64,000 nt of DNA from Myxococcales bacterium (GTDB lineage: Bacteria; Myxococcota_A; Polyangia; Polyangiales; Houyiibacteriaceae). The stretch lies in contig JAHBWH010000019.1 of assembly GCA_019637115.1 (NCBI GenBank), positions 1 to 64,000 of the forward strand, given 5' to 3'. The position numbers and the translations under genes are program-made. Below the pieces are notes generated by a model. That model saw only the letters and a list, made by a program, of their open reading frames with translations, was not told the DNA's origin and made no database searches. This document shows, one piece after another, positions 2,955 through 42,497 of this stretch (position 1 is the first letter of the stretch; each line of letters opens with the position of its first letter).

Positions 2955-3235
2955 GCGACCTGGTCACGGGTAGCGGGTCTGGTGTGGCGCCGCGCCGACC
3001 TGCTCATGGGTAGCGGTTCGCGTGCGCCCCGGCGACCTGGTCACGGTAGCGGGTCTGGTGTGGCGGCGCGACCTGCTCATGGGTAGCGGTTCGCGTGCGC
3101 CCCGGCGACCACGTCATGGGTAGCGGTTCGCGTGCGCCCCGGCGACCACGTCATGGGTAGCGGTTCGCGTGCGCCCCGGCGACCACCGCATGGGTAGCGG
3201 TTCGCGTGCGCCTCGTGGAAGCGCACCGTGACGGG
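2955..3235. repeat. 37-bp tandem repeat with a 73-76 bp higher-order unit
   Basis: Units beginning ATGGGTAGCGGTTCGCGTGC start at 3079, 3116, 3153 and 3190, exactly 37 bp apart. Another copy starts at 3006. Left of it, a longer unit of about 75 bp alternates TAGCGGGTCTGGTG with TAGCGGTTCGCGTG. The right edge (3214-3235) is a degenerate copy of the 3' end of the following leftward gene (native copy 3248-3270). Copies are contiguous with no unique spacers, so this is not a CRISPR array. Confidence 0.9.
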
Positions 3236-3243
3236 ACACGCCC

Positions 3244-4308
3244 TCAGCGTGGCAGGCGCACCGTGACGGGCGCCGCCACGAGGCGGGCTTGCGCGGCCTG
3301 CAGGCCGAAGGGGCGCATGGCGCCGACCTCGTAGGGTCCCGGCCGCAGGCCGACGTAGTGGGCGCTCGTGCCAGCGTCGAGCCAGCCGATCGGGGCACCT
3401 TGGACGGTGACCATGATGCGGGTGGGCGCCCGGTTCTCGACCAGGATGCCTTCGCTCGGCGGCTCGTGGCCCAGCGTCGAGGGGTGCGGCTCCGAGGGAC
3501 CGCGACCCCGGCGTGGGTCGATGCGGAGCATCATCTCGGGGGTGAGGAACGCGCGGTTGGCGGCACGTGGGATGGGCGGTGGCGGGTCGACGTGGTCGGC
3601 GCGGAGGGCCGAGCGTGGGAGATCGACGCCGACGTCGGCCGTGCGGTCCGCGCGCCACAGGCCAACCCGGAAGCTCGGGGGGGAGCCGCCCTCGCCGCAT
3701 CGGCGACTGACCGCATCAGGGGGGGCGCTGCTCCACTCGGCGATCAGCCGGCAGATGAGGTCGCCTGGCCCGGACTGCTCTCGGGTCGGGGGGATCGTCA
3801 CGCGGTGACCGGGCGAGGCGCGCAACCTCCCCCCCTCGAACCAGTGGGCGAGCTGACCTGGTCCGAGCGGCCGCCCTCCCTCTCCGTCGAAGACGTACAC
3901 GCCGGAGGCGTCGCGCCGCAGGCGCACCTCCGAGCCCGCGTGGACCGGCCAGCCGGTCCCGCCGAAGCGCGCGCGCAGGCGGTCCCGCCCGACGTCGACG
4001 TAGAGCTCCGCGGTCGGGCGCGGGATCGCGGGGGACGGAGTCCCGAGGCTGCGCGGGACGATCAGGCTTACGCGGTAGACGATGCGCCGCGCCTCGGCGG
4101 GCGCGGCGCTCGCGTACTCGGAGTCGTCGTGGAACGCAGGGGCGATAGGCCAATCGACGTCGCCCTCACGGTGGATGGGCTCGGCGACGACCTGCTCGAT
4201 GGAGGGCGGTTCGAGCTCGAGCGAGGGCTCGGGCGGCGGGCGGATGGGCGGCTCCTCGGCGCACGCGAGGGCGACGAGCAGCACGACCGGCCAATGACGG
4301 CGCGCCAT
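3244..4308 (-). CDS. predicted lipoprotein, unknown function
   Basis: The 354-aa product begins with a lipoprotein signal peptide; the lipobox LVALAC places the acylated Cys at residue 16. A Pro/Glu-rich linker follows, then a mostly beta-type domain with paired Cys near residues 200 and 217. The C-terminal 70 residues (GAPIGWLDAGTSAHYVGLRPGPYEVGA region) resemble a PEGA-like or carboxypeptidase-regulatory-like fold, but I cannot assign it firmly. Its ATG overlaps the stop of the upstream PEGA gene (TGATG), so translation is probably coupled. It is the last gene of a leftward envelope operon. Confidence 0.75.
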   Translation of the reverse strand: MARRHWPVVLLVALACAEEPPIRPPPEPSLELEPPSIEQVVAEPIHREGDVDWPIAPAFHDDSEYASAAPAEARRIVYRVSLIVPRSLGTPSPAIPRPTAELYVDVGRDRLRARFGGTGWPVHAGSEVRLRRDASGVYVFDGEGGRPLGPGQLAHWFEGGRLRASPGHRVTIPPTREQSGPGDLICRLIAEWSSAPPDAVSRRCGEGGSPPSFRVGLWRADRTADVGVDLPRSALRADHVDPPPPIPRAANRAFLTPEMMLRIDPRRGRGPSEPHPSTLGHEPPSEGILVENRAPTRIMVTVQGAPIGWLDAGTSAHYVGLRPGPYEVGAMRPFGLQAAQARLVAAPVTVRLPR

Positions 4309-5585
4309 CAGAACCGGAAGACGACCTGACCGTTCGAGTCCTGACCGATGGGATCCGAACGTCCCGCCACGACCGCGATGGTCACCACGGCGCCGACGAC
4401 CACGACGGCGCCGATCGCCGCCCAGAGCCACCACTTCTTGTAGAGCGGGTCGCGCTCGACGGGCGTCTCGGGGACCGTGGGCGTGAGGTCGACGAAGGTC
4501 GGGTGCTGCTCGTCCACGGCCTGCGGGCTGAGCACGTTCTCGATCGATTGCTGCACGGCGCGGGCGACGACCTCCTCGAGCTCGCCGAGCGCGCGGGGCG
4601 CCTGCACCTCACCGCGGAGCACGCGGCGACGGTTGTGCACGTCGAAGACGACGAGCTCGAGCTTCACGGTCTCCTGCGAGTCCCCGTAGGAGACGCGGAT
4701 GACGCCGATCTTGTCGAGGTCGAGGATGCGACCGACCTCGCCGATCGGGCCGTCGGCGGTGCGCATCTCGTGGCCCGCGATGCCGTTGACCGCCTCGTCG
4801 AGCCCCTCGTTGCCGTCGACGGGCAAGAGGAAGGCGTTGACGCTGGCGGCGCCTCGGCGGCCCCCCGTCTCCGCGTTCTCGATGTAGGGGGTCGAGCCCG
4901 GCGAGACGACACGGATGGTGTGCTCGCCACGCGGCAGATCGCCGATGGTGACGGGGGTGAGCCCGCGGGGGATGAAGTCGACGTAGGCCATCGAGCCGGG
5001 CGGGTCGCTCTCCACCGTCACCTGGCCGTCCCGGGCGCGAACGGCGGCTTGGTTGTAGCGGTCGATGACGTCGGGCGGGAAGAGGTTCGGGTCGGGGACG
5101 AGGTGCGGCATCTGGACGTGCAGCCGGGTGAAGGTGCGCGCCGCGCCGCGTCGGTCGTTGTTGTAGGTCTGGGCGGCGCCGAGGAAGAGGAGCGCCGTTC
5201 CGAGATCGGCCGGGTCCTCGAGCGCAGACATCGCCTGGTCGAAGTTCTCGACCGCCTCGACGAGCAATGTGGTCGCCTCGTCGAGCCGCAGATCGAGGTA
5301 GGCCGTGCGCCCCTCCTCGAGCTTCACGCGCGCGATCCGCAGCTTCTCGAGGGTGTTGTCGTCGTAGCCGAGGAAGCGCTGGTCGGCGCGCTGCCAGTCC
5401 GCGCCGTCGACCCGCCGGAGGGCCGCCCGGGCTGCGGCTCCGACGCGGCCGGCGATGGCCTCGAGCTCGGGGTCGACTGCGGTCGAGACCACGTAGACGC
5501 GCTGCATCGCGACCGGCTGGGCCTGCGCGGCCCACGCCGAGGCGAAGGTGATCGAGAGCGCCAAGAGAAGAGTGTGTTTCGGCAT
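4308..5585 (-). CDS. secreted PEGA-domain protein with C-terminal membrane anchor
   Basis: The 425-aa product has a Sec signal peptide (cleavage after AQA near residue 22). An alpha-helical middle resembles tetratricopeptide-type helices, and a PEGA domain at about residues 188-235 carries the typical VTVESDPPGSMAYVD and GLTPVTIGDLPRGEHTI motifs. A membrane helix lies near residues 386-408, preceded by KKWW. PEGA proteins are surface or periplasmic modules common in myxobacteria. The gene sits between the 120-aa gene and the lipoprotein gene it overlaps by one base, consistent with joint assembly in the envelope. Confidence 0.85.
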   Translation of the reverse strand: MPKHTLLLALSITFASAWAAQAQPVAMQRVYVVSTAVDPELEAIAGRVGAAARAALRRVDGADWQRADQRFLGYDDNTLEKLRIARVKLEEGRTAYLDLRLDEATTLLVEAVENFDQAMSALEDPADLGTALLFLGAAQTYNNDRRGAARTFTRLHVQMPHLVPDPNLFPPDVIDRYNQAAVRARDGQVTVESDPPGSMAYVDFIPRGLTPVTIGDLPRGEHTIRVVSPGSTPYIENAETGGRRGAASVNAFLLPVDGNEGLDEAVNGIAGHEMRTADGPIGEVGRILDLDKIGVIRVSYGDSQETVKLELVVFDVHNRRRVLRGEVQAPRALGELEEVVARAVQQSIENVLSPQAVDEQHPTFVDLTPTVPETPVERDPLYKKWWLWAAIGAVVVVGAVVTIAVVAGRSDPIGQDSNGQVVFRF

Positions 5586-5601
5586 GCCCCTCGGTTTCGT
5601 C

Positions 5602-5964
5602 TCAACGCTCGAGGTCGCGCACGAGCGCGGCCAGGTTCGGGTCGTCCTCCAGCGTCGCGCGGAGGTGGGCTTCGAGCGCCGCGCGACCCCGATCGTCGAG
5701 GCCCGCGGCCATCGGTCCGCTCAGGATGTCGGCGAGCAGGCGCTCGACGGCGGCGGCGGCGTCGAGGCGCCCCTCGGCGAGCTCGCGGGCGACCTCGCCC
5801 GGCAGCGCGGACTGCGTTGCTCGCTCGGCGCCGGACGCCTCGGTCTGGCCCATGACCTCGTCGAAGCGCTCGCCACGGACTCGCTCGCCCGGCCCAGCTT
5901 CGGGGCGGGCGGCGTCGGCCGCGGAGGGCGGTCGGCTGCCCGGGGGTTTGATGGAGGAACTCAT
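5602..5964 (-). CDS. 120-aa soluble protein, unknown
   Basis: The product is charged and helical. A disordered Pro/Ala-rich N terminus (about 30 residues) precedes a region with Leu/Ala heptad-like spacing (residues 55-118). There is no signal peptide, so it is probably cytoplasmic. The C-terminal half, with LEAHLRATLEDDPNLAALVRDL, looks like a small helical domain found in some myxobacterial regulatory proteins, but I do not recognise it. It is the second ORF of the leftward operon, 16 bp upstream of the PEGA gene. Confidence 0.65.
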   Translation of the reverse strand: MSSSIKPPGSRPPSAADAARPEAGPGERVRGERFDEVMGQTEASGAERATQSALPGEVARELAEGRLDAAAAVERLLADILSGPMAAGLDDRGRAALEAHLRATLEDDPNLAALVRDLER

Positions 5965-6077
5965 CGGACGCTCCGGAGACTACCGAAGTGGCGACGATTC
6001 GCGCAAGGCGCGGTTCGGCAGGGGGTGCGGGAGGCCGCCGAGGGCCGGGTGCCGCGAGTCGAGATGGAGTGGGTCAT
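5961..6077 (-). CDS. possible 38-aa leader peptide or small protein
   Basis: An ATG at 6077 is preceded on the minus strand by GGGAGG at ideal spacing (six bases), one of the best Shine-Dalgarno sequences in the window. The frame encodes 38 residues rich in Ser, Thr and Arg (starting MTHSISTRGTRPSAAS). It ends in a TGA overlapping the ATG of the 120-aa gene (ATGA). This is the arrangement of a translationally coupled leader. Composition is not strongly protein-like, so it could merely relay ribosomes to the next gene. Confidence 0.4.
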   Translation of the reverse strand: MTHSISTRGTRPSAASRTPCRTAPCANRRHFGSLRSVR

Positions 6078-6223
6078 GGCTTGCCTCCCGAGAGCGAAGT
6101 CGTGCTTCGACGAGGGGTCCTCGGTCGCCCGCGCGCCCAGTTGCGTGGCTTCGTAAAAAAAAGTGAAGCTCCACCATCTTCGTGAACGGCTCGCCGCCCA
6201 CTCGTGGGATTTGGGTCCACGGC

Positions 6224-6252
6224 TTGACGTCCCACCTGCGTTCCCCATAAGT
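6224..6252 (+). promoter_or_regulatory. candidate sigma-70-type promoter of the MerR gene
   Basis: TTGACG (6224-6229) is followed after 17 bp by ATAAGT (6247-6252), about 20 bp upstream of the GTG start of the MerR-family gene. The -35 match is good and the -10 match moderate. The surrounding sequence (6140-6180) is locally AT-rich for this genome. Confidence 0.4.
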
Positions 6253-6271
6253 CTCCCTCGGAGCCCCTCTC

Positions 6272-6784
6272 GTGTGTCCCCCCAACGACTCTCACGCGCG
6301 CCTCGACATCGTCGATCCCGATGAGCCGACGCTCACCACGGGGGACATGGCCCGGCTCAGCGACAGCACGCTGCGGACGGTGCGTTTCTACGAGCAAGAG
6401 GGCCTGATCAAGCCCCGCGAGCGCGCAGGCGGGCGGCGGATGTTCACGCATGACGAGCTGCAGAAGCTGCAGCTCGCGCTCGACCTCCGGGAGGCCGGGC
6501 TCTCGCTGCAGGACATCAAGGAACTCTTCGAGCTGAAGAGCCGCTACGCCACCCCACAGCAGGCGAGCCACGAGATCACGGACATGCTCTCGCGGCAGAT
6601 CCTCTCCATGCAGGAGAAGATCGCCAAGCTGCGCAAGCTGCGCGAAGAGCTCGCGACGATGGTCACCGTGATCTCGGAGTGCTCGGACTGCGACGGCGCG
6701 AATTTCCCCGCGGGCTGCGGGGACTGCGATGTGCTCGAGCAGCCCGGGCTCCCGCGCGCGATGCGCGTCTTGTGGAGCCGCTGA
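6272..6784 (+). CDS. MerR-family transcriptional regulator with C-terminal four-Cys cluster
   Basis: The 170-aa product carries a MerR winged-helix domain (TTGDMARLSDSTLRTVRFYE at about residues 22-41, then the conserved GLI-KP-R and GGRR-F wing). A long dimerisation helix spans residues 100-135. The C-terminal effector region contains Cys in a CX2CX8CX2C pattern (CSDC...CGDC), suitable for a metal ion or an iron-sulfur cluster. This spacing differs from SoxR (CX2CXCX5C), so the signal sensed is unknown. The GTG at 6272 is preceded by GGAG. The downstream flavoprotein gene is a plausible target. The last 54 bases of the gene are duplicated downstream. Confidence 0.85.
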   Translation: MCPPNDSHARLDIVDPDEPTLTTGDMARLSDSTLRTVRFYEQEGLIKPRERAGGRRMFTHDELQKLQLALDLREAGLSLQDIKELFELKSRYATPQQASHEITDMLSRQILSMQEKIAKLRKLREELATMVTVISECSDCDGANFPAGCGDCDVLEQPGLPRAMRVLWSR

Positions 6785-6945
6785 GCGCCTCAACGACCCG
6801 GCTGGCGGTGTTCGAGCAGCCCGCTCCCGGGCGCGATGCGCGTCTCATGGAGCCGCTGAGCGCCCCGGCGACCCGGCTGGCGGGTGCTCGAGCAGCCCGC
6901 TCCCGCGCGCCGCGCCTCGGAACGCTTCGGCGACCCGGACGTGGG
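6731..6945. repeat. 77-bp direct repeat derived from the merR-like gene 3' end
   Basis: A unit starting GTGCTCGAGCAGCCC covers the last 18 codons of the MerR-type gene, its TGA and 23 downstream bases (6731-6807). It is repeated at 6808-6883 with few changes and again, more decayed, at 6884-6945. The extra copies lie outside the gene because the first stop codon is retained. Confidence 0.85.
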
Positions 6946-7031
6946 CTGCGCGGGCCCCTCGCGACGGGCGCGTGGAGGTGTCTGGTGATCGTCTCGTGCG
7001 CTGCTTGGCGCGACGTGGAAAGGTCCGCGCG

Positions 7032-8273
7032 ATGGCGAAGATAGCGATCGTCGGCGGTGGACCGGGCGGGAGCTCGTTCGTGCTCTGGGCCCTGCGCGCC
7101 GGGGTGCAGCCCGAGGACCTCGTCATCTTCGACAAGGCGCGGTTTCCGCGGCCCAAGCTCTGCGGCGGAGCGCTCACCACCCGGGGGACCGAGGCGCTCG
7201 ACGAGCTGCTCGGGCGCCCGCCTGGCGGAGGAGAGACGAGGCGACTCGAATTTCGCAGTGTTCTCGGTAGCTTTCCGGTGCAGGAGCGCGGCTCGCAGTG
7301 GCTCTACGACCGGGCGCTCCTCGACGACCAGCTGCTCTCGGCGTGCGTCGCCGCGGGGGTGGAGGTGCGACAGGGTTGCGCCGTGCGCGAGGTGGAGGCC
7401 GCGCCCGAGGGGTGGCGGCTGCGCTTCGGGCGCGACGAGGTCGAGCGCTTCGAGTGGGTCGTCGGCGCCGATGGAGCCAGGGGCATCGTCGGCCGCAGCG
7501 CGGGGCTGCGGGGTGGGGTCGTCGGGCGGCTCGTGGAGGCGGTCTTCGAGGCCACGGACGACTCGCTCGATCCGGCGACGCTCTACTTCGACTTCGACCC
7601 GATCGTGGATGGAATCCCAGGCTACGCTTGGCTCTTCGCGTATCCCAAGCCGGGGACGGCGTTCGCGGCCGAGGCGGGGCCTCCGCTCCGCGCGACGGAC
7701 GGCCTGTGGAAGCTGGGGATCATGGACGGGCGGGGCGTGACCGGCGGTGGCGCGCTCCGCGACTGGACCTCGCGCTTCGCCGACCGGCACGGCTTCCGGC
7801 TCGTGGACGAGAAGATCCAGGGTTGGCCCGAGCATTATTGGTCACCTCGCGCCGAGGCCCATCGTCCGGGGCTACTCCTGACGGGGGAGGCGTGGGGGAT
7901 CGACCCGCTCCTCGGCGAGGGCATCGCGCCTGCGATCGAGCTCTCGCGCTACGCCGCTGGGCGGCTGAAGGGGGCGCTCGACGCAGGCCGAGCGACGATC
8001 CCCGGCTACGAGGCGGGGCTGCTGCGGACCGAGGAGGGCGCGAACCTGCGCTTCCAGTGGCGGTTGGCGGAGCGCCTCTACGGGCCGAACGGGCGCCGCT
8101 GGATGCGGGTGCTCTTCGACCACCGCTACATGCGCGAGCTCGCGGCCTCAGGGACCGAGCGCTACGGGCGTCTCCAGAGGCTCCAGTGGAGGCTCATCTG
8201 GCGCTACGTGCTGCAGGTGCTGCGCGGCGGCCTGCCTTCGAACGCCCCGCTGCTCTCCTCGCCCGCCGAGTGA
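7032..8273 (+). CDS. geranylgeranyl-reductase-like FAD-dependent oxidoreductase
   Basis: The 413-aa product begins with a Rossmann dinucleotide-binding motif (IAIVGGGPGGS, residues 4-14). It continues with KLCGGALTTRG near residue 37, a Cys-containing motif typical of the geranylgeranyl reductase/digeranylgeranylglycerophospholipid reductase branch of the p-hydroxybenzoate hydroxylase superfamily. The second FAD motif VVGADGARG lies near residue 150 and the DPLLGEGI motif near residue 295. Such enzymes hydrogenate isoprenoid chains of lipids, quinones or pigments; the substrate here is unknown. GGAAAGG precedes the ATG at 7032. It follows the MerR gene on the same strand. Confidence 0.8.
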   Translation: MAKIAIVGGGPGGSSFVLWALRAGVQPEDLVIFDKARFPRPKLCGGALTTRGTEALDELLGRPPGGGETRRLEFRSVLGSFPVQERGSQWLYDRALLDDQLLSACVAAGVEVRQGCAVREVEAAPEGWRLRFGRDEVERFEWVVGADGARGIVGRSAGLRGGVVGRLVEAVFEATDDSLDPATLYFDFDPIVDGIPGYAWLFAYPKPGTAFAAEAGPPLRATDGLWKLGIMDGRGVTGGGALRDWTSRFADRHGFRLVDEKIQGWPEHYWSPRAEAHRPGLLLTGEAWGIDPLLGEGIAPAIELSRYAAGRLKGALDAGRATIPGYEAGLLRTEEGANLRFQWRLAERLYGPNGRRWMRVLFDHRYMRELAASGTERYGRLQRLQWRLIWRYVLQVLRGGLPSNAPLLSSPAE

Positions 8274-8342
8274 CCTCGGGCGTCGAACGCGCTGCTCCTC
8301 GCCCGCCGAGTGAGCCCGGCGGCTCTCCTCGCGCGCCGAGTG
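8238..8342. repeat. tandem copies of the reductase gene 3' end
   Basis: The last 37 bases of the reductase gene region (8238-8274, ending GCCCGCCGAGTGA) recur at 8282-8313 with the stop triplet intact, and again in truncated form at 8318-8342. The offset is 40 bp, so the copies do not preserve reading frame. Confidence 0.85.
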
Positions 8343-8434
8343 CGCTCGTCTTCGGAGCGTCCCCGCATCGAGCGCGCTGCGGCCCTCGCCCCGAGGCAGC
8401 GAGCGCGCCCCGCGGTGCTATGGTGCTCCGCCTC

Positions 8435-16219: not shown

Positions 16220-17427
16220 CTCGACCGCGGGGGCTCCGACGATGGGCGCGCCTCGTCGCGCTCGCCGCCGTGATCGGCGCAGCGAGCCCGCGCGCCTCGA
16301 TGGCCCAGACGGGGGAGACGAGCGAGATCGGCGGCGATGACGCCACACCGCCGCTCGGCGCTCCGACGAGGGACTCCACCGGCGAGCGCGATCCGGCAGC
16401 GTCTCTGGGTTCGACGGAGGCCTCCGCGGAGGGGAGCGCTCCGACGGCGGCCTCCTCCCCGGAGCACGATCCCGCGGCTTCTCTGGGTTCGACCGTGGCC
16501 TCCGCGGAGGGGAGCAGCGCGGGCGATCCGGCGGCGCCTCTCGGCTCGACGGGGCCCACCGAGGGCGCCGAGGAGGAGGAGCTTCCCGTCATCCCGCCAC
16601 CGCCCACGTCCGACGGCCCGGTGCCGGTCCCGCTTCCGCTCGCGCGCCCCGTCCCGCTCCCGCTCCCGACGGGCGCGGGCGGCGGAGCGCCGCGCTGGCG
16701 ACCGCGCGCGCAGCTCTCGCTGCGAGGCGCCGCGCTGCGGAACGTCGAGGGAGAGGGCGGGCTCGTCATGGGTCTCCTCTCCGCGCGGGTCTGGTTCGGA
16801 GACGTCGAGAGCGCGCTGCAGTGGACGGTGGAGGTGGAGGTCGGCCCTCTCTGGGCCGCGCCGCGCGAGGGCATCGGCCAATCCACCTTTGGACTCCGGC
16901 TTGGCCTCGAGATCGGCGACGAGAGCAGGCTCGGCCTCGAGCTCTATGCTCGGCGCACGGGGCGCGCGTTCAGCCCGACGGAGGTCGGTAGCCATCACAT
17001 CGTGGGCCTCGCGACCTCGCTGCAGCTCGAGCGCGGGGGCATGCGCGTGCAGATCGGTCTCGGACCGACGAGCCATTTCGGCTTCGGCTTCGTCGCCGCG
17101 CTCACCTCCCGCCTGGCCCTCGTGTTCGAGACCGAGACGTTGTTCGGGATCGCCCCGATCGCGATCAACGCTTCGCGCACGGAGCTCGGTGTGCGCGCGC
17201 AGCTCACGTCACCGGACAGCCCGAAGCTGAAGGTCTCGGTCGACCTCGGCGTCTCGCGCGGCCGCGTCGCGTTCTACCCGCACTGTGAGCTCGTCGCGTG
17301 CCCCGAGGAGCTCCGGAGCGCCGCGGGCTTCGGGGGGTTCGTCGGGCTCGTGATCGAGCGCCAGCGCCACACGCGCAGCGCGACGCCTCGGTCGCTGGCG
17401 CGCGTCGTCGAGCGCGAAGCGTGGTGA
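16216..17427 (+). CDS. outer-membrane-like protein with repetitive linker
   Basis: The 403-aa product has a signal peptide (ending SMAQ near residue 30). A low-complexity linker follows, in which DPAASLGST occurs three times, then a Pro-rich stretch (PVPLPLARPVPLPLP). A C-terminal domain of about 240 residues is made of alternating amphipathic strands, suggestive of a beta barrel. Two Cys near residue 360 (CELVAC) may form a disulfide. Translation is coupled to the haem lipoprotein upstream; the two may form an outer-membrane porin-cytochrome type module, but this is inference. Confidence 0.7.
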   Translation: MTRPRGLRRWARLVALAAVIGAASPRASMAQTGETSEIGGDDATPPLGAPTRDSTGERDPAASLGSTEASAEGSAPTAASSPEHDPAASLGSTVASAEGSSAGDPAAPLGSTGPTEGAEEEELPVIPPPPTSDGPVPVPLPLARPVPLPLPTGAGGGAPRWRPRAQLSLRGAALRNVEGEGGLVMGLLSARVWFGDVESALQWTVEVEVGPLWAAPREGIGQSTFGLRLGLEIGDESRLGLELYARRTGRAFSPTEVGSHHIVGLATSLQLERGGMRVQIGLGPTSHFGFGFVAALTSRLALVFETETLFGIAPIAINASRTELGVRAQLTSPDSPKLKVSVDLGVSRGRVAFYPHCELVACPEELRSAAGFGGFVGLVIERQRHTRSATPRSLARVVEREAW

Positions 17428-17445
17428 GAAGGCCGCTTGTCGAGT

Positions 17446-21297: not shown

Positions 21298-21300
21298 GAC

Positions 21301-22882: not shown

Positions 22883-22886
22883 CGAA

Positions 22887-30823: not shown

Positions 30824-30893
30824 GTCGTGGGTGGGCCTCCGGCGGGGTCGTGGGTGGGCCTCGCGCGTGAGTGGGCCTCGCGGCGGGTCGTGC
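30824..30893. repeat. about 22-bp tandem repeat
   Basis: Three imperfect copies of GTCGTGGGTGGGCCTCGCGC lie between the convergent WG-repeat and AstA-like genes. No conventional terminator is visible. Confidence 0.75.
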
Positions 30894-30927
30894 TGCGGGG
30901 CCCACGAGCGAAGCCGGACCTCGGTGC

Positions 30928-31953: not shown

Positions 31954-31989
31954 GTCTCGCTCCTCGGTGCCACGTCTCGCTCTTCGGTG
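31950..31989 (-). promoter_or_regulatory. duplicated RBS/start creating a 7-codon minicistron before the AstA-like gene
   Basis: On the minus strand the 20-bp segment ending GAGACGTG, containing the Shine-Dalgarno and GTG start of the AstA-like gene, is repeated in tandem with one mismatch. The upstream GTG (31973) opens a seven-codon frame whose TGA overlaps the real start (GTGA). Ribosomes loading on the first copy would therefore end exactly at the second. Confidence 0.65.
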
Positions 31990-32097
31990 CGCGCGCTCGC
32001 GGGCGCGATGGGCGTCGTGCTCCGCGGTGGCGCGAACGAGATCGCGGCGCGACTCGTCGCGAGCAGGCTCCACATGGCGGTCATTGAGGCACCATCG

Positions 32098-32378
32098 ACC
32101 TCAGAGGACGTCCGGCTCTCGAGCAGGGTCATCGCGTACGTCCTCGCCTCGGCCTCAGAGGACTTCTGGCTGTCGGGCAGGATCATCGCGTCGATCCTCG
32201 CCGAGGCCTCAGAGGAAGCTGCACGCGAGCGCTCCAGACGAGGCGACTTCTGGCCGTCGGGGAGGGTCATCGCGTAGTCCTCGCCTCGGCCTCAGAGGAC
32301 TGCTGGCTGTCGGGCAGGGTCATCGGTCCTCGCCTCGGCCTCAGAAGGACTTCCGGCTGTCGAGCAGGATGGTGACAG
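32098..32378. repeat. tandem copies of the dtd gene 3' end
   Basis: The last bases of dtd, read on the plus strand as CTCAGAAGGACTTCCGGCTG, are repeated as CTCAGAGGACTTCTGGCTG and variants. The stop triplet TCA lies at 32101, 32155, 32209, 32292 and the native 32341. Spacings are 54, 54, 83 and 49 bp. All outside copies follow the native stop codon. Confidence 0.9.
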
Positions 32379-32790
32379 GGCCCGCGACCCGCGCGTCGAC
32401 GGCCATGGTGGTGCGGAAGCGGCCCGTCGCGACCTTCAAGCCTCGCGCGCGGAGCTTCTCGACGACCTCGAGGTAGAGGCGCTCGGCTTCGGCGGGCTCG
32501 GCGGCCTGCGTGAACGAGGGGCGCCGGCCGCGGCGCACGTCGCCGAAGAGGGTGAACTGCGAGACCACGAGCACGCCTCCGCCGACCTCGGCGACGCCGC
32601 GGTCCATCTTGCCCTCGTCGCCCTCGAAGACCCGCAGACCGGCGATCTTCGACGCGCAATAGTCGACGTCGGCGGCGCCGTCGCCACGCTCCGCGCCGAG
32701 GTAGACGAGCAGGCCCGGCCCGATGGCGCCGACGACCTCCCCCCCGACCTCGACCGACGCTCTCGCCACCCGTTGCACGACGGCGCGCAT
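32341..32790 (-). CDS. dtd: D-aminoacyl-tRNA deacylase
   Basis: The 149-aa product matches Dtd over its full length. It has MRAVVQRVARASV at the N terminus, the catalytic VVSQFTLFGD (about residues 77-86), RPSF, and the C-terminal GPVT motif. Dtd removes D-amino acids and glycine mischarged on tRNA. In the usual NxGPVT motif the Asn is replaced here (RVAGPVT); the Gly-Pro pair that excludes L-amino acids is kept. It is a single leftward gene with extensive 3'-end repeats. Confidence 0.95.
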   Translation of the reverse strand: MRAVVQRVARASVEVGGEVVGAIGPGLLVYLGAERGDGAADVDYCASKIAGLRVFEGDEGKMDRGVAEVGGGVLVVSQFTLFGDVRRGRRPSFTQAAEPAEAERLYLEVVEKLRARGLKVATGRFRTTMAVDARVAGPVTILLDSRKSF

Positions 32791-32893
32791 GGCGGTGTCG
32801 TATCAGCGGCCCGTGGCCAGGTTCAACCGCCTTCTTCGCGGCGCGTGCGGGGGGCGGATGGAAGTACCCATGAACCAGCGCGCGGGTCCGCGG

Positions 32894-33030
32894 TGCCACC
32901 TCGTGCGGGCCAGCTCGTGCGAGCCACCTCGTGCGGGCCACCTCGTGCAAGCCACCTCGTGCGAGCCACCTCGTGCGAGCCACCTCGTGCGAGCCACCTC
33001 GTGCGGGCCACCTCGTGCGGGCCACCTCGT
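32894..33030. repeat. 15-bp tandem repeat GCCACCTCGTGCGAG
   Basis: About nine copies with one- or two-base variants (GCGGG, GCAAG, GCGAG endings) lie between dtd and coaE. Fifteen is a multiple of three, so frames stay open, but no start signal precedes them. Confidence 0.92.
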
Positions 33031-33045
33031 GCGGCGCGACGTCGG

Positions 33046-33657
33046 CTATCGCGGCCCGAGCCGCGCCAGGAGGGCGGCGTGGACCTCATCGACCTGCGCC
33101 CGCGTCTGCTCGAGGGAGCCGTCGTTGTCGATGACGTAGTCCGCGACCTCGACCTTCTTCGCGAGCGGGAGCTGGGACGCGATCCGCGCGCGCGCGTCAG
33201 CCTCGGAGGTGCCGTCGCGCGCGACGAGGCGCGCGAGCTGGGTCGCCTCGTCGACCCGGACGACGACGAGGGCGGCGAAGGCCTTGGTGAGCCCGTTCTC
33301 GACGATGAGCGCGGCCTCGTAGAGGGCATAGGGCGCCGGGTGATCGGCGAGCGCGCGGAGGCGCTCGGCGCCCGCCTGCGCGATGCGGGGGTGCGTGATG
33401 GCGTTCAGCTTTCGCCGCGCCTCCGGATCGGCGAAGACGAGGGCGCCGACCCGCTTGCGGTCGAGGGTGCCGTCTGGGAGCAGGACGTCTTCGCCGAACG
33501 CCGCCACGATCTCGGCGAGGCCGGGGCTGCCCTTGGCGACCACCTCCCGCGCGAGCGCGTCGGCGTCGACGACCGGGATCCCCTTGTCGGCGAAGAGCGC
33601 CGCGACCGTGCTCTTCCCGCACGCGATGCCGCCCGTGAGGCCCACCGTGGGTTTCAT
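33046..33657 (-). CDS. coaE: dephospho-CoA kinase
   Basis: The 203-aa product has the P-loop GLTGGIACGKST (residues 6-17), VVDADALAREVV for substrate binding, the LDRKRVGALVF and HPRI motifs, and the lid region. All are characteristic of CoaE, which phosphorylates dephospho-CoA in the last step of coenzyme A synthesis. The ATG at 33657 gives the standard start two residues before the conserved core. Confidence 0.96.
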   Translation of the reverse strand: MKPTVGLTGGIACGKSTVAALFADKGIPVVDADALAREVVAKGSPGLAEIVAAFGEDVLLPDGTLDRKRVGALVFADPEARRKLNAITHPRIAQAGAERLRALADHPAPYALYEAALIVENGLTKAFAALVVVRVDEATQLARLVARDGTSEADARARIASQLPLAKKVEVADYVIDNDGSLEQTRAQVDEVHAALLARLGPR

Positions 33658-33687
33658 GGGTCCCGCCCTACCCCTCGCCCGGGGGTC

Positions 33688-33840
33688 GGGCAACGTCACG
33701 CCCTTCATGGCCGCCCGCTCACGTGGGGCTCCGTCGCGCGGGGGGCTCCGGCAACGTTACACCCATCTTGGCCGCCCCTCGCTCGGAGCTCGGGGAGCGT
33801 CACACCCATCCCACCCCACGTGGCGCGAGGGCGACGTCAC
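33688..33840. repeat. about 60-bp tandem repeat upstream of coaE
   Basis: CGGGCAACGTCACGCCCTTC (33688) recurs as CCGGCAACGTTACACCCATC (33748) and, shortened, CGGGGAGCGTCACACCCATC (33791). The first two copies continue with TTGGCCGCCC or ATGGCCGCCC. They lie in the divergent region between coaE and the fibro-slime lipoprotein gene and may carry promoter sites. Confidence 0.75.
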
Positions 33841-33935
33841 ACGAGGTCCGTCGAGGTCACACATCGTCCTGCAAAAATTCGCCATCACTGTTGGTTCATG
33901 TGGTGAATCTCACTCGCGTCGGTGAGAATGCCCCC

Positions 33936-35966
<2,031 letters not shown>

Positions 35967-36139
35967 CGCGGCCGACTCGCTCCTGACGACGCGCGAGCGC
36001 ATCACGAGCCGCCCCGCGATGTGGTGCCGCCTCGAGCTTGCCCGATGGACCTTCTCCGGCCGGGCATCCTCGTCGCGGAAGAGCCCCCGAGCGCGACGCC
36101 GCTGGCTTCACGAGCCTGGGCGCGAGCGGCGCAATTAGT

Positions 36140-36169
36140 GAGGCCCGCGCAGGGTGATGCGCGGGCCTC
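36140..36169. terminator. strong 12-bp stem-loop between convergent genes
   Basis: GAGGCCCGCGCA (36140-36151) and TGCGCGGGCCTC (36158-36169) are perfect complements with a six-base loop. There is no T-tract. Its position between convergent stops suggests a bidirectional terminator or mRNA-stabilising hairpin. Confidence 0.75.
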
Positions 36170-36230
36170 GGGGTGCGGGATGCGACGGCCGGGTTGGGGT
36201 GAGATCCGGCCGTGGGCTCAGGGTCGGCGG

Positions 36231-37367
36231 CTACTGGCGATAGCAGTGCCGCTCGGTGCTGCCGGGCTGGCAGGCGTAGCCGGAGGGGCAGGTGAGGAAC
36301 TCGGGGGTGCGACCCTCGATGCAGCGCACGAACTGCGCGCCGCCCTGCCGGCAGGTGTACTCGGGGAAGCCGTTCCACGGACCGCAGGTGCTGCGCGAGG
36401 TGTTGCTGGCGCAGTCGCCCTGGTAGAGGCGGAAGCCCCAGGCGCACGGCTCGAGCGCCTCGTTGTACGCGCCGGTGCGGATGCCGCGACCCGTGGCCTC
36501 GCACCAACCGCAGCCGAAGAGCCCCGTGGCCTCCTCGCAGGTGCGGCGGTCGCAGGGGTTGGTGCTGGGCGGCGGCGGGGGCGGCGGTTGGTAGGTGCCG
36601 GCGTCCGGGCTCGACGGGGGCGGGGGCGGCGGCTCGGCGGAGCCCTGGCCGAACGAGTCGCCCCAGCCACGCGCGGTGCTCTCGAGCTGCGCGTAGAGGC
36701 GCGGGACGCTGCCGAAGATGTCGACGCCGCTCTGGAGGTAGTAGCCGCTGTTGATGCGGATCACGTCGCCGCTCGCGCCGAGGGTCGGGCCGCCGCTGTC
36801 GCCGGGGCAGAGGTTGGTCGTCGTGCGGCCCCACGACGAGTTGATCTTCTGCTTGGCCCAGGTGCTCCGCGTGCCGCGCGCTTGGCAGCCGTAGCCATAG
36901 ATGGCGATCGACGCGCCGTTGCTCGGGTTCGCGCGGGCGAGGCGGGCGGGCGTGGCCACCGCCGCCGGGACGGGGGAGGCGAGCCGGATCAGGGCGATGT
37001 CGTCGGGGCCGACGGCGCGGCCGTAGCTGACGAAGCGCTCGATCGTGTAGCGCTGCGCGTTGCTGGCGGAGCGGCGGATCTCGAAGGTGCCGTAGTTGCC
37101 GGGGGTCGTCCGGGTGGCGTAGTTGAGGCAGTGCGCGGCCGTGATGACGAGCCGCGGCCCGACGAGGGTGGCGGTGCAGCCGCTGATGGAGCCGACCTCG
37201 GGGCGCTCGTAGGTGTAGACGCCGCCGATCAGCTCGTCGGTCGTGCCCTCGATCGGCTCACGGCTGCCGAGCTCGACGGGCGCGCAACCGAGCGCGAGCA
37301 AGAGCCCCACCCGAAGACAAAGACTGCCCCTGACGCGCGTCGCGCGCCCTTGATCCGTCACCCGCAT
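36231..37367 (-). CDS. surface lipoprotein serine protease (S1 family) with Cys-rich C-terminal domain
   Basis: The 378-aa product has a lipoprotein signal (lipobox LALGC, Cys28) and a chymotrypsin-fold domain with the catalytic triad His79 (TAAHC), Asp123 (DIALI) and Ser191 (GDSGGP). A Pro-rich linker (about 250-280) and a C-terminal domain with about ten Cys follow. The residue six positions before the catalytic Ser is Asn185, corresponding to chymotrypsin 189, so trypsin-like Lys/Arg specificity is not expected. GGGAGG precedes the ATG at 37367. Probably an extracellular protease anchored in the outer membrane. Confidence 0.9.
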   Translation of the reverse strand: MRVTDQGRATRVRGSLCLRVGLLLALGCAPVELGSREPIEGTTDELIGGVYTYERPEVGSISGCTATLVGPRLVITAAHCLNYATRTTPGNYGTFEIRRSASNAQRYTIERFVSYGRAVGPDDIALIRLASPVPAAVATPARLARANPSNGASIAIYGYGCQARGTRSTWAKQKINSSWGRTTTNLCPGDSGGPTLGASGDVIRINSGYYLQSGVDIFGSVPRLYAQLESTARGWGDSFGQGSAEPPPPPPSSPDAGTYQPPPPPPPSTNPCDRRTCEEATGLFGCGWCEATGRGIRTGAYNEALEPCAWGFRLYQGDCASNTSRSTCGPWNGFPEYTCRQGGAQFVRCIEGRTPEFLTCPSGYACQPGSTERHCYRQ

Positions 37368-37577
37368 GTTCACACCTCCCGACGCGCCGAGGCGCATCAG
37401 CCATCCACTTGCTGACCCCCTAGTGCATGCCGGCGCCGAGAAGCGATCACTGGTTCATGATCTTTTTTTCGGAGGCAGGACGAGGACGGTTCGCGGGGGT
37501 TGGAGACACGAACGCGCGCGGCCGTGCGGCGCGCGCGCGTCGTTCGTCGCCGCGGGCGCTGGCGCCCGCGGTCCGTC

Positions 37578-38396
<819 letters not shown>

Positions 38397-38449
38397 GCCA
38401 GGGGGCATGGAGCGCCGGGTGACGACCGTCAAGCGATGGAAAGGTGCGT

Positions 38450-39094
38450 TCACGCCTCGATCGCGAAGACCAGCTCGCGCGCGCTCTTCACGCCGCGGCT
38501 GAGGAGCGAGGTCGAGACGAGCTCCTCGTGTTGACCGAGGAGCGTCAAGCGACACCCTTCGTAGAGCGCGCGCACCTCGGCCTCGGGAACCGAGAAGGGC
38601 GGCGAGTCGGGGGGCGCGTCGTGGACGAAGGTGACGAGCAGCGTGCGCGCCCCAGGCGCGAGCAGCCCGCGCTGGTGCGCGACGTAGCGCGGCCGCTGCG
38701 CAGGGGGCATCGCGACGAGCGCGGCGCGGTCGAAGCAGGCGTCGAAGTGACCGAGCACGTCGGCGCCGAGCGCGAAGTAGTCGCCGACGACGATCTCGAT
38801 CGAGCCTCCACGGTAGCGGATGACGCCGTCCTCCTCGACACGCTCGGCGGTGAGGCCGTGCTCCTCGAAGAGCTCGCGCGCGGCGTCCTCGACCAGCTCG
38901 ACGCCCACCACGGCCGGGGCGTGGGGCCTCGCGGCGATCCAAGCGAGGTCGAGCGACTTGCCGCAGAGCGGCACGAAGACCCGCCGCGCGCGGTCGAAGA
39001 GCGCCGCGTGCGCGACGAGGTGGGCGTTCGGTGCGTCTTGATGCCAGCCGATGCGGCCTTCGGCCCAGCGCGTGCGCCAGAAGTCGGGATCCAT
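38450..39094 (-). CDS. thiopurine S-methyltransferase-family protein
   Basis: The 214-aa product matches the TPMT family. It has MDPDFWRTRWAEGRIGWHQ at the N terminus, RVFVPLCGKSLDLAWIA (SAM motif), VVGVELVEDAARELFEEHG and GDYFAL with FDRAALVAMPP. Bacterial members methylate thiols, selenium or tellurium compounds. There is no signal peptide, so it acts in the cytoplasm. It lies between a radical SAM gene and the exported methyltransferase-like gene, all leftward. Confidence 0.88.
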   Translation of the reverse strand: MDPDFWRTRWAEGRIGWHQDAPNAHLVAHAALFDRARRVFVPLCGKSLDLAWIAARPHAPAVVGVELVEDAARELFEEHGLTAERVEEDGVIRYRGGSIEIVVGDYFALGADVLGHFDACFDRAALVAMPPAQRPRYVAHQRGLLAPGARTLLVTFVHDAPPDSPPFSVPEAEVRALYEGCRLTLLGQHEELVSTSLLSRGVKSARELVFAIEA

Positions 39095-39164
39095 CGTCGC
39101 GGGATATCGCGGCCGCCGCGCCATCGCCAGTCCCGGCCCCGCTGCGGCTGGCTCACCGTCCGGG

Positions 39165-40460
39165 TCAGTCGCGTCCGGGCTTCTCCATCCGCACACCGAG
39201 CGCCTCGGCCTTCGCGGCCTCCTTGCGGCGCTTGGCCTCGAAGAGGCGCTGGCCGCGCTCGGTGACCTGGCCGACCGGGGGCGCGCCGGGCTCGCGAAGC
39301 TCGGGGGGCGGCATCTCCCCGTGCGTTGTACGTAGGGCGGCGCGCTCCTTCGCGCGAGCGCGCGTCTCCTCGATGCGTACGTCGAAGTCTCGCTGCCACG
39401 CGACGAGCGACGGGTACCGCTCGCGGTAGCTCGGGTCGCTCGGATCGTCGAGGATCGCGCGGACGACGCGATCACGGTCGATGAAGACGGGCGCGAGCTC
39501 CGCGGGATCGTAGCCGGCCCCGCGGTCGAAGAGGCCGCCGCAGATCATGCGCAGCGAGCAGGCGTCGCAGGCGTCCGCGTAGACGTGCTCCCAATCCGTC
39601 TGCCGTACGGTCTGCTTGGCGTCGAGGAAGTGGACGATGCGCTCCTCGCCCTTGACGATCTTCCGCGTCTCGGTGCTCGCCCACGGGAAGTCGCTCATGT
39701 AGCAGAGCGGCACCTTCTCCACGCGGAAGGTGCGGCCGCTCTTGTGCAGGAAACGCATGGCGCGCGCGAGCGAGAGCTCGAAGTCGGCGAGGCGCGGCGT
39801 GAACTGGTCCTGGTTGACCTCGGCGCGGCCCATCGAGGGGTCGAGGTTGTTCCAGACGAAGTGGCGGATGTGGGGATGGCGCGCGACGAGCGTCTTCACG
39901 TTCTCGTCGAGGTGGTCCGCGTTCAGGCGGTTGATCACGCAGTTGACGTTCGCCTCGATGCCGAAGCGGCCCGCGTTCTCGAGCGCGGCGTGCGCGCGAT
40001 CGAGCGTGCCCTCGGTGCCACGCAGCCGGGCCTCGACGTCGGCTCGGACCGAGTAGATGGAGACGTGCACGAGCTGCAGCCCGGCGTCCGCCATCGCGCG
40101 GGCGAAGCCGGCGTCGGCGAGCCGGTGGCCGTTGGTGATCATCCGGACGTGCAGGCCCTGCGCGCGGGCGTAGGCGCAGATCTCGGGGAGCTCGGGGTGC
40201 AGTGAGGGCTCGCCGCCCGTGAGGATCACGCCGAAATAGCCGCGGGCGACGAAGTCGTCGACGAGCACCTTCATCGACGCGAAGTCGTGCGTATAGGGTG
40301 TCGTCGGGTTGGAGCAGAACCCGCAGAAGTGGTTGCAGTGGCGGACGACCTGGATGTAGCCGATGTTGGCCAAGCCGCCGAAGGGTAGCGCATCCGCGCT
40401 CGAAGCGGCCGAGCGCGCCGCCCGTCCCTCGCCGTCTGGATCGACTGCCTCAGCAATCAC
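39165..40460 (-). CDS. radical SAM/SPASM-like enzyme, unknown substrate
   Basis: The 431-aa product carries CNHFCGFC, the CX3CX2C iron-sulfur motif (Cys42, Cys46 and Cys49 from the chosen start), then ILTGGEPSLHPE, the GGE motif that binds the SAM amino group. A C-terminal Cys set (CDACSLRMICGG, about residues 305-316) recalls SPASM or twitch auxiliary-cluster domains. A basic helical tail follows. The GTG at 40460 is preferred; a TTG at 40502 would add 14 residues. No precursor-peptide gene of classical type is adjacent, so the substrate is unknown. Confidence 0.8.
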   Translation of the reverse strand: MIAEAVDPDGEGRAARSAASSADALPFGGLANIGYIQVVRHCNHFCGFCSNPTTPYTHDFASMKVLVDDFVARGYFGVILTGGEPSLHPELPEICAYARAQGLHVRMITNGHRLADAGFARAMADAGLQLVHVSIYSVRADVEARLRGTEGTLDRAHAALENAGRFGIEANVNCVINRLNADHLDENVKTLVARHPHIRHFVWNNLDPSMGRAEVNQDQFTPRLADFELSLARAMRFLHKSGRTFRVEKVPLCYMSDFPWASTETRKIVKGEERIVHFLDAKQTVRQTDWEHVYADACDACSLRMICGGLFDRGAGYDPAELAPVFIDRDRVVRAILDDPSDPSYRERYPSLVAWQRDFDVRIEETRARAKERAALRTTHGEMPPPELREPGAPPVGQVTERGQRLFEAKRRKEAAKAEALGVRMEKPGRD

Positions 40461-40601
40461 CGCAGGGGTCAGGGGGTGAACGCTTACGCGCTGTCTGCAC
40501 AAATGTGGACTTCCGTAGCCCCGTATGCGCAGGTCCTAGGCCCGAACGGGTCGTACAGGACCGCCCATTCCGATAGCCAACTCGATGCCAAGGATGATCT
40601 C

Positions 40602-40874
40602 ATGAAAGATCGATTGATGGTTTGTCTCATGACGTTGTCGCTCGGGGCTGCGTACCTGATCGGCTGCGCGACCGCACGCTACGACTCGCCGACCGCTTCC
40701 GCGCAGCCAGCTCCCCCCGGCGTCCAGCAATGGGAGTACTCCTGTACCGATGGCTACAACGCCCAGACAATCATGGAGCGGGCGAATGCTCTGGGGCGTG
40801 CCGGTTGGGAGATGGTCGCTGGGGTCGGGAGCGAGCGGGTTCGGGGGCTCTGGTGCTTCAAGCGGCCGTTGTAA
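40602..40874 (+). CDS. 90-aa DUF4177-like lipoprotein in a low-GC patch
   Basis: The product begins MKDRLMVCLMTLSLGAAYL with lipobox LIGC (Cys22). It ends in WEYSCTDGYNAQTIMERANALGRAGWEMVAGVG and CFKRPL, the layout of DUF4177 (W-E-Y start, GWE centre, KRP end; shown here only as key fragments of at most twenty residues each: WEYSCTDGY, GRAGWEMVAG). AAGGA precedes the ATG. The region 40480-40880 is clearly less GC-rich than its surroundings, suggesting recent acquisition. Confidence 0.75.
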   Translation: MKDRLMVCLMTLSLGAAYLIGCATARYDSPTASAQPAPPGVQQWEYSCTDGYNAQTIMERANALGRAGWEMVAGVGSERVRGLWCFKRPL

Positions 40875-40900
40875 CTGACCATCACGCGACTTTCGCGGCT

Positions 40901-42250
40901 CTAGAAGCAGGCCATGCTCGTGCAGCCCTGCGGCGGTCCGCAGCACGTCTGGCCGGCCCCGCACACCGACTGCGGGATGCCGCAGCTCCCGCCCGAGCAC
41001 ACGAGCTGGAAGCAATCGCCGGATTCGGGGAGCTGACAGACCACGCCGTTGGTATTGCGCACGCAGGTCACGTCGTCGCGGTCGACGCGGGGCACGCCCG
41101 TGCAGGCCCCCGCCCGACACAGCTGGTCCGTACACGTCCGCGTGCGCGTGCCCATGTTCGAGCACGTCCCGCGGAAGTCGCAGAGCCCGAAGGGGCCGCA
41201 GGTCGGGTCCCCACATACGACGTTCTCGGTCGTGCGGTTGCACGGCTCCGACTCGACGTCGTCCGTGGGGACGCAGGCGTTGTCCTCGCAACGGAAGTTG
41301 CGGACGGTGCGGGTGCGCGTGCCGGTCTGGCTGCAGGTCGTCCCGTAGGCGCACGCGCCCCAGCCCCCGGCGGAGGAGGGCGGGCAGTCCGCGTTCGTCA
41401 GGCAGCCGAGGCATCGCCCCGTCGCTTCGTCGCAGACCGTCCCGCCCCCGCACGGGTTGCCCGCGTGCTCGGAGCAGGTGCCTTCTCGGCAGGTGTCGAA
41501 GCCGTTGCAGAAGAGGCCGTCGTTGCACGGGCCCTCGCGGGGCTCCTGCCGACAGCCGGCGATCCGATCGCAGACACCCACCATGCACGGGCCGGCGTCG
41601 TCACAGAGGGCGTCGTCGGGGACGTGCTCGCAACCAACCTCCGGATCGCAGCGATCTCGCGTGCAGGGGTTGCCGTCGTCGCAGCTCGAGGCCGTGCAGA
41701 GCGGCCCGGCGTCACCGGAGGCCCCGTCGACGCGAGCGTCGGCGGGGACGTCCGCGTCCGTAACCCCAGCGTCCTCGATGCCTGCGTCCGCGCCGATCGA
41801 GGGTGGCGTCCCGGTCCACGGCGGGAGCGAGCTCCGTCGCCGTGACTCGCAGCCCTCGTCGCCGCAGGTCTCTTCACCCTCGCAGACGACCTCGACGCAG
41901 TCGGCGAGCAAGAAGAGCGGGAGCACCCGCGTCTCGTCGCGGACGAGCGTGACGATCGCGCTCCTTCGCACGATCTCGCGTCCGGCCAGCCGGCCCACCG
42001 CCTCGACCTCGACCGGCCCGAGCGCCGCCACCGGCACGAGGCTGGCGGTCATCGGGAGCGTCTCGCGGCTCGCGAGATCGAGTCGTCGGATCTCCTGACC
42101 TCCGCTCGGCCCGCGCACCACGAGCTCCACCGAGTCGATCTCGGTGGGCACGTGGAGATCCGTGTCGACGGAGACGATGAGCTGCGTGACGGGGCTGACC
42201 CCGCAGCCGCAGATGACGACGAGCATCCACGACGGCGCCTTCGACCACAT
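40901..42250 (-). CDS. Cys-rich surface lipoprotein
   Basis: The 449-aa product has a lipoprotein signal (VVICGC), a beta-type N-terminal domain of about 100 residues (VDTDLHVPTEIDSVELVVRG) and an Asp/Ala-rich spacer. A C-terminal region with more than forty Cys follows, including CDDGNPCTRDRCDP units and two GTRTRT segments resembling thrombospondin-type or myxobacterial disulfide repeats. Probably an outer-surface structural protein. Confidence 0.82.
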   Translation of the reverse strand: MWSKAPSWMLVVICGCGVSPVTQLIVSVDTDLHVPTEIDSVELVVRGPSGGQEIRRLDLASRETLPMTASLVPVAALGPVEVEAVGRLAGREIVRRSAIVTLVRDETRVLPLFLLADCVEVVCEGEETCGDEGCESRRRSSLPPWTGTPPSIGADAGIEDAGVTDADVPADARVDGASGDAGPLCTASSCDDGNPCTRDRCDPEVGCEHVPDDALCDDAGPCMVGVCDRIAGCRQEPREGPCNDGLFCNGFDTCREGTCSEHAGNPCGGGTVCDEATGRCLGCLTNADCPPSSAGGWGACAYGTTCSQTGTRTRTVRNFRCEDNACVPTDDVESEPCNRTTENVVCGDPTCGPFGLCDFRGTCSNMGTRTRTCTDQLCRAGACTGVPRVDRDDVTCVRNTNGVVCQLPESGDCFQLVCSGGSCGIPQSVCGAGQTCCGPPQGCTSMACF

Positions 42251-42337
42251 GAGACGGAGGATCACCCCCGAATGGGGTCCGCGCAATCCCAGGCGTTCGC
42301 ACCTGCGACGACGAGCGCCGCCCCAGCTGGCAGACAT

Positions 42338-42497
42338 CGTTCAGGCGCGCGGCACGATGGCCTGGCTGGCGCGCGTCGATCACGGGGGCGGCGCGACGGG
42401 GTGGTTGGCGCGCGTCGTCGTTCAGGCGCGCGGCGCGAGGGGGTGGCTGGCGCGTCGTTCAGGCGCGCGGCGCGATGGACGGCTGGCGCGTCGATCA
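42338..42497. repeat. tandem copies of the egtD-like gene 3' end
   Basis: The 3' end of the next leftward gene, read on the plus strand as GATCAGGCGCGCGGCGCGAC, is repeated four more times. The stop triplet TCA lies at 42341, 42380, 42422, 42459 and the native 42495 (spacing 36-42 bp). All five copies keep TCA followed by a GC-rich block and TGGCTGGCGCG. Confidence 0.92.

What the first reader, a model, noticed from the sequence alone, without database searches (positions are those of the whole stretch)
3214..42497. Intergenic tandem repeats made from the 3' ends of neighbouring genes, stop codon included
At six loci the array beside a gene is a decayed copy of that gene's own 3' end: lipoprotein (3214-3270), merR-like (6731-6945), reductase (8238-8342), sirtuin (9076-9165), dtd (32098-32378) and egtD-like (42338-42497). 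At merR, the reductase, dtd and egtD the stop triplet is copied as well. The units are unrelated between loci, so this is not one dispersed element; it looks like a process acting on gene ends. Copy offsets (40, 36-42, 76 bp) mostly do not preserve frame, which argues against a protein-level role. Possible explanations are replication slippage provoked at transcription ends, or selection for redundant stop or termination signals. The sequence shows the copies; the mechanism is inference.
Basis: partly seen in the sequence, partly recalled or inferred. Interest (0 to 1): 0.78.

Follow-up and report, generated by a model that had tools for sequence, protein, structure and literature searches.

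The report
Tandem duplications spilling over gene ends
In this bacterium short stretches of DNA between genes keep getting duplicated head to tail, and because a gene's tail can be copied outward without harming the gene, some gaps carry decaying copies of the neighbouring gene's own end, often with the stop codon; the pattern is real but looks like ordinary duplication plus selection rather than a special device.

Summary
In 1.64 Mb, 36 of 685 gene 3' ends have a copy of part of their last 100 bp in the adjoining gap, against 4 of 797 gene 5' ends and 7 of 3425 mismatched end/gap pairs; a held-out 360 kb gives 8 of 155 and 0 of 178.

The interpretation, a process acting on gene ends, is only partly supported. 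The chance that a repeat pair spans a point is 6% at the stop codon and 21-23% at 100-150 bp downstream: the gene end is the shoulder of an intergenic distribution, not its peak. Uniform birth of duplications predicts 27.0 crossings of 3' ends in two genomes (31 seen) and 31.2 of 5' ends (6 seen). So duplication occurs in noncoding DNA at large, runs over stop codons because the first copy keeps the protein intact, and is purged near starts. At four of six loci relatives keep the gene end; none of 12 orthologous ends has such a copy, so arrays are young. A 1.7-fold excess of births near stops in this genome leaves room for a mild 3' bias.

The parts
3248..3270 (-). 3' end of the 'lipoprotein' gene (3244-4284, -), source of the copy
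   Evidence: orthologues in G001 and G006 end at the same residue (VRLPR in G001, VSLPR in G006)
3214..3235 (-). copy of that end, stop not copied
   Evidence: 95% identity over the aligned bases
6731..6784 (+). 3' end of the merR-like gene (6272-6784, +) with its TGA
   Evidence: alignment reaches residue 169 of 170 in five of six relatives and 168 in the sixth
6808..6859 (+). copy of the merR 3' end including TGA; the array (period about 75) runs on to 6910
   Evidence: 92% identity, offset 77
8238..8273 (+). 3' end of the FAD-binding 'reductase' gene (7032-8273, +) with its TGA
   Evidence: the last 3-6 residues do not align to three relatives
8283..8313 (+). copy of the reductase 3' end including TGA
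9137..9165 (-). 3' end of the Sir2 gene (9126-9866, -)
   Evidence: the G001 orthologue, the only one compared, ends at the same residue
9078..9106 (-). copy of the Sir2 3' end, stop not copied
   Evidence: 86% identity
32341..32370 (-). 3' end of dtd (32341-32790, -) with its TGA
   Evidence: orthologues in G001 and G006 end at the same residue
32095..32340 (-). decayed array of dtd-end copies; best copy 32155-32183, with TGA
   Evidence: TRF reports 32095-32216 of it
42495..42527 (-). 3' end of the egtD-like gene (42495-43529, -) with its TGA; this tail lies beyond the conserved domain
   Evidence: Pfam match ends at residue 332 of 344
42337..42494 (-). array of egtD-end copies; best copy 42422-42454, with TGA

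Best explanation
Short tandem duplications (units mostly 12-80 bp) arise de novo, at unrelated places, through the noncoding DNA of this genome, then expand or decay. When the duplicated unit happens to span a stop codon, the first copy still ends the protein correctly, so the event is near neutral and the gene's tail, with or without the stop, is laid out as noncoding DNA that then decays. Units spanning a start codon or the 50-75 bp upstream are mostly removed by selection, probably because they disturb translation initiation or the promoter, and units inside genes survive almost only if in frame. Shown: the 3'/5' asymmetry, the density profile, the gene end as the older copy at four of six loci, no such copy at the orthologous ends tested. 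Inferred: that slippage or short-range unequal recombination makes the first copy, and that selection rather than mutation spares starts.
For: Copies at 36/685 3' ends, 4/797 5' ends, 7/3425 mismatched pairs. Repeat-pair rate: 6.0% at stops rising to 23.4% at +150 bp; 0.7% at starts, 6.9% at 100 bp and 18.0% at 200 bp upstream. Uniform-birth expectation for 3' crossings 15.7 (bootstrap 12.2-20.6) with 25 seen in this genome, and 11.3 with 6 seen in G006; for 5' crossings 18.2 with 5 seen and 13.0 with 1 seen; pooled 3' 31 against 27.0 (P 0.24), 5' 6 against 31.2 (P 4e-8) (the P values take the expectation as exact). Arrays inside genes have periods that are multiples of 3 in 145 of 159; intergenic ones in 84 of 158, still above a third because hexamer-based periods are common. 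Orthologues in G001 and/or G006 of the lipoprotein, Sir2 and dtd genes end at the same residue and merR aligns to its penultimate residue, yet none of the 12 orthologous gene ends tested (G001, G006, G008; all six genes) has a copy of itself in the next 300 bp (highest score 23); G001 has different arrays beyond Sir2 and the reductase. One convergent gene pair (contig C2, genes 76720-78018 + and 78130-79482 -) shows the process whole: a unit of about 108 bp covering both tails and both stops was doubled, turning a spacer of 2-3 bp into 111 bp, and the junction carries 7 bp (CGCGATG) common to both source places, as slippage or recombination between short direct repeats would leave.
Against: In this genome births within 60 bp of a stop are 1.7 times as dense as in mid-gap (58 in 28.8 kb, 40 in 34.2 kb, P 0.008), and 25 crossings exceed the expected 15.7 (P 0.018); G006 shows neither (2.6 against 2.2 per kb, P 0.74; 6 seen, 11.3 expected). 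Birth is not uniform between gap kinds: convergent mid-gap DNA has 0.41/kb here (3 arrays) but 3.73/kb in G006 (9 arrays). The repeat-pair rate falls again to 9.0% at +300 bp (8 of 89). Gene-end crossing is rarer in the sampled relatives: 1/62 in G001, 3/150 in G006, 0/52 in G009, 0/39 in G013. Genes and starts come from my own caller. The slippage step was not observed, and a general microhomology test was not clean.
Confidence: 0.8

Rival explanations
1. A mutational process favours gene 3' ends: replication stalls or R-loops where transcription ends provoke slippage, so tails are copied more often than other DNA.
For: 1.7-fold denser births within 60 bp of stops than mid-gap in this genome (P 0.008) and 25 crossings against 15.7 expected (P 0.018); dense convergent gaps in G006 (3.1-3.7/kb).
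Against: The repeat-pair rate rises with distance from the stop up to 150 bp; divergent gaps over 100 bp from starts reach 1.77/kb against 1.97-2.06 near stops; G006 shows no excess near stops. DNA far from genes may hide unannotated elements that lower its rate.
Confidence: 0.13
2. Selection keeps the copies as redundant stop or transcription-termination signals.
For: The stop triplet is kept in 16 of 17 copies that cover it.
Against: Expected about 0.78, P 0.08, and local alignment favours matching ends; offsets are multiples of 3 in 9 of 28; no consistent hairpin or strand-composition signal in array-bearing 3' flanks (mean z -0.66 against -0.46 without arrays here, -0.15 against -0.80 in G006); none of 12 orthologous ends has a copy.
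Confidence: 0.04
3. The arrays came first and rewrote the gene ends: a gene lost its stop and now ends inside an array.
For: At the reductase the last 3-6 residues, and at egtD the last 11 (against G008; 31 against a more distant homologue in G006), do not align to relatives; the egtD Pfam domain ends at residue 332 of 344.
Against: At the lipoprotein, Sir2 and dtd genes a relative ends at the same residue, and at merR within a residue or two.
Confidence: 0.1
4. Staggered breaks are filled in and joined by Ku-dependent end joining, doubling the overhang.
For: Some fresh two-copy duplications show little or no microhomology (not clean).
Against: No Ku gene was found in this genome, G001 or G006, the three repeat-rich ones, while 5 of 18 genomes searched have it (these are draft genomes, G001 89% complete). 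The C2 junction has 7 bp of microhomology.
Confidence: 0.03

Closest known systems
Tandem repeat regions of Borg extrachromosomal elements (PMC9879509; abstract and passages read)
   Same: Units that arise independently and recently; in ORFs unit lengths divisible by 3, in intergenic DNA mostly not; [quoted passage not shown]
   Different: Borg repeats are near perfect, A-enriched and on an archaeal element; here they are in a GC-rich bacterial genome and largely decayed. In the passages I saw, 3' and 5' gene ends were not compared against a null.
Bacterial minisatellites or VNTR loci (general knowledge; a review is named in the reference list seen, not read)
   Same: Head-to-tail arrays of units of some 10-100 bp attributed to slippage or recombination.
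   Different: Here arrays cover about 10% of the intergenic DNA sampled, and a subset is built from gene tails. Copy-number variation between strains was not testable.

Membership tests
Minisatellite / tandem-duplication arrays | head-to-tail copies of a local sequence, more than chance | tested here: met
   133 of 583 gaps against 1 of 583 shuffled
Minisatellite / tandem-duplication arrays | copy number varies between strains | not testable with these tools
   one genome per species is held
Borg-type tandem repeats | units differ between loci, arise independently, absent at orthologous sites | tested here: met
   96 of 125 arrays share nothing with another; 0 of 12 orthologous ends have a copy
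Borg-type tandem repeats | near-perfect, A-enriched units on a Borg element | tested here: not met
   GC 0.71 genome sample; median match 88% in intergenic arrays
Dispersed intergenic element (REP/ERIC/MITE-like) | one sequence family at many loci | tested here: not met
   the merR region finds only two weak partial matches elsewhere in its own genome; of the six loci, the arrays in the all-against-all set share nothing with others
Integrase attachment-site duplication at gene 3' ends | two copies flanking an inserted element | tested here: not met
   at the six loci the copies lie 35-187 bp apart, with no room for an element; larger spacings were not searched for

The most novel reading that the evidence does not exclude
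Transcription ends are mild hot spots for tandem duplication in this lineage, so that gene tails are a preferred raw material for new intergenic DNA, and convergent gene pairs grow spacers out of their own ends.
Probability: 0.15. Interest if true: 0.65.

Novelty: new member of a known kind. Interest (0 to 1): 0.4.

Why it matters
It gives a measured case of how intergenic DNA is made: local tandem duplication, tolerated across stops and purged at starts. Decayed gene tails with stop codons can mislead gene callers and searches for terminators or small RNAs. The stop/start asymmetry is a simple yardstick for how much DNA upstream of a start is under selection (about 50-75 bp here).

Tried and rejected
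Hairpin and strand-composition tests for a terminator role gave no consistent signal. Microhomology at fresh duplications could not be judged in general: most exact runs are pieces of longer arrays; one clean junction has 7 bp. MutS-family genes are found in 18 of 18 genomes searched, this one included, so absence of MutS is not the cause; Ku was not found here. A table of births by place over all gap lengths seemed to show very low rates far from all genes; long gaps may hold uncalled genes, so I restricted to gaps of at most 300-600 bp. The first print of the convergent junction picked the wrong gene pair and was redone. The script labels the held-out set 380 kb; it is six contigs of 60 kb, 360 kb, of the 400 kb fetched. 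Papers: eight answered searches; from their listings I recognised one paper with this anatomy, PMC9879509, of which I read the abstract and passages; the others were seen as listings only. I make no claim that the pattern is unpublished elsewhere.

Full report
WHAT WAS CHECKED. The window is the first 64 kb of a 70,558-base contig (C101) of an 8.88 Mb, 434-contig genome. GC of the sample is 0.71 and the four best named dtd relatives are Myxococcota. I fetched 1.64 Mb of the genome (with the window), about 18% of it, wrote a codon-usage gene caller (1196 genes in 1.64 Mb), ran Tandem Repeats Finder, and aligned each gene's last 100 bp to the following gap (up to 250 bp) and each gene's first 100 bp to the preceding gap. 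Left out before counting: genes under 300 bp, gaps under 60 bp, genes open at a stretch end.

THE SIX LOCI. Pfam confirms MerR, an FAD-binding protein, Sir2, D-Tyr-tRNA deacylase and histidine-specific methyltransferase; the 'lipoprotein' has no Pfam match.

GENOME-WIDE TEST. 36 of 685 3' ends score 32 or more, against 7 of 3425 mismatched pairs; 4 of 797 5' ends do, against 7 of 3985. Without the window: 30 of 649 and 3 of 763. In six contigs (360 kb) fetched after the test and threshold were fixed: 8 of 155 and 0 of 178, Fisher P 0.002. The reverse-complement control in the first 1.24 Mb gives 2 of 513 at 3' ends and 3 of 598 at 5' ends.

IS THE GENE END SPECIAL? The rate at which a repeat pair spans a given point was followed along gene and gap. 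In this genome (1.24 Mb) it is 0.9% at 100 bp inside the 3' end (right side trimmed at the stop), 6.0% at the stop, 14.2% at +50, 21.5% at +100, 23.4% at +150, 18.5% at +200 and 9.0% at +300; at starts 0.7%, then 1.3% at 50 bp, 6.9% at 100 bp and 18.0% at 200 bp upstream. Stops are thus a shoulder, and starts are shielded for some 50-75 bp. Collapsing each array to one unit and counting births per kb (gaps up to 450 bp): within 50 bp of a start 0.49; at 50-100 bp 1.31; divergent gaps over 100 bp from starts 1.77; tandem gaps away from both ends 1.25; convergent mid-gap 0.41 (3 arrays); within 60 bp of a stop 1.97-2.06. Uniform births would give 15.7 crossings of 3' ends (25 seen) and 18.2 of 5' ends (5 seen); in G006 11.3 (6 seen) and 13.0 (1 seen). 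Pooled, 3' ends agree with uniform births (31 against 27.0, P 0.24) and 5' ends do not (6 against 31.2, P 4e-8). Against this reading, the present genome alone shows a 1.7-fold excess of births near stops (P 0.008) and more crossings than expected (P 0.018); G006 does not, but its convergent gaps are dense (3.1-3.7/kb).

DIRECTION. Orthologues show which came first. The lipoprotein, Sir2 and dtd genes end at the same residue as an orthologue in G001 and/or G006, and merR aligns to its penultimate residue in five of six relatives and one residue shorter in the sixth. There the gene end is old and the array new. For the reductase the last 3-6 residues and for egtD the last 11 or more do not align, so there the array may have shaped the tail. 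None of 12 orthologous gene ends in G001, G006 and G008 has a copy of itself in the next 300 bp (best score 23); G001 has unrelated arrays beyond Sir2 (13-bp unit) and the reductase (16- and 18-bp units). Arrays thus look young and independent.

A CLEAR EXAMPLE. On contig C2 two convergent genes (76720-78018 + and 78130-79482 -) are parted by 111 bp. That spacer is 3 bp, then 43 bp of the second gene's tail, then 70 bp of the first gene's tail overlapping it by 7 bp, each with its stop, then 2 bp: one duplication of about 108 bp across both stops made almost the whole spacer out of an original 2-3 bp. The 7 bp at the junction, CGCGATG, occur in both source genes, as slippage or recombination between short direct repeats would leave.

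FUNCTION? Offsets are multiples of 3 in 9 of 28, as by chance. Stop retention (16 of 17) is not clearly beyond expectation (P 0.08). Array-bearing 3' flanks are not consistently more structured than others and have no clear strand skew. I see no evidence of a role.

HOW COMMON. Arrays with a period not divisible by 3, a sign of noncoding arrays that needs no gene calls, number 86 per Mb here, 75 in G001, 90 in G006, 15 in G009 and 15 in G013; 0 in 110.6 kb of eight other Myxococcota loci; 8-16 per Mb in 69 loci of other phyla with GC below 0.66; but 109 per Mb (5 arrays in 45.7 kb) in three loci with GC of 0.66 or more. So this lineage is rich in arrays, and high GC may contribute. Gene-end crossing itself is lower in the sampled relatives (1/62, 3/150, 0/52, 0/39). 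Ku was not found in the three repeat-rich genomes and MutS is present, which leaves replication slippage or short-range unequal recombination as the likely, unobserved, source.

VERDICT. Real and well supported as an observation; best explained by tandem duplication plus selection; precedent for arrays that start in gene ends exists in Borg elements (PMC9879509, abstract and passages).

Noticed in passing
window 55857-55976; 34 loci in the 1.64 Mb of the own genome: A hexamer family (YGGACN)n: 38 of 64 period-6 arrays belong to it and 34 loci have four or more exact units (27 noncoding); none in the sampled 160 kb of G001, 400 kb of G006, 194 kb of G009 or 199 kb of G013. It also accounts for 18 of the 29 arrays that share sequence with another. 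Looks like a species-specific microsatellite expansion of unknown cause.
   Followed up: partly
G006, convergent gaps: In this same-family genome arrays fill 50% of convergent gaps of 300-600 bp (10 gaps) but 10% of divergent ones (7 gaps); a possible convergent-transcription effect, small sample.
   Followed up: partly
window 16358-16515: A 78-bp unit, two copies, crosses the called start of the gene at 16495: one of the few 5'-end hits; the start may be miscalled.
   Followed up: no
window 51419-52107: Repeats of 69 and 207 bp, multiples of 3, inside a large gene (50477-53473), with consensus units rich in TGC codons in the gene's frame.
   Followed up: no
window 255-548: A 13-bp unit repeated 22.6 times some 100 bp upstream of the gene called at 656.
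   Followed up: no
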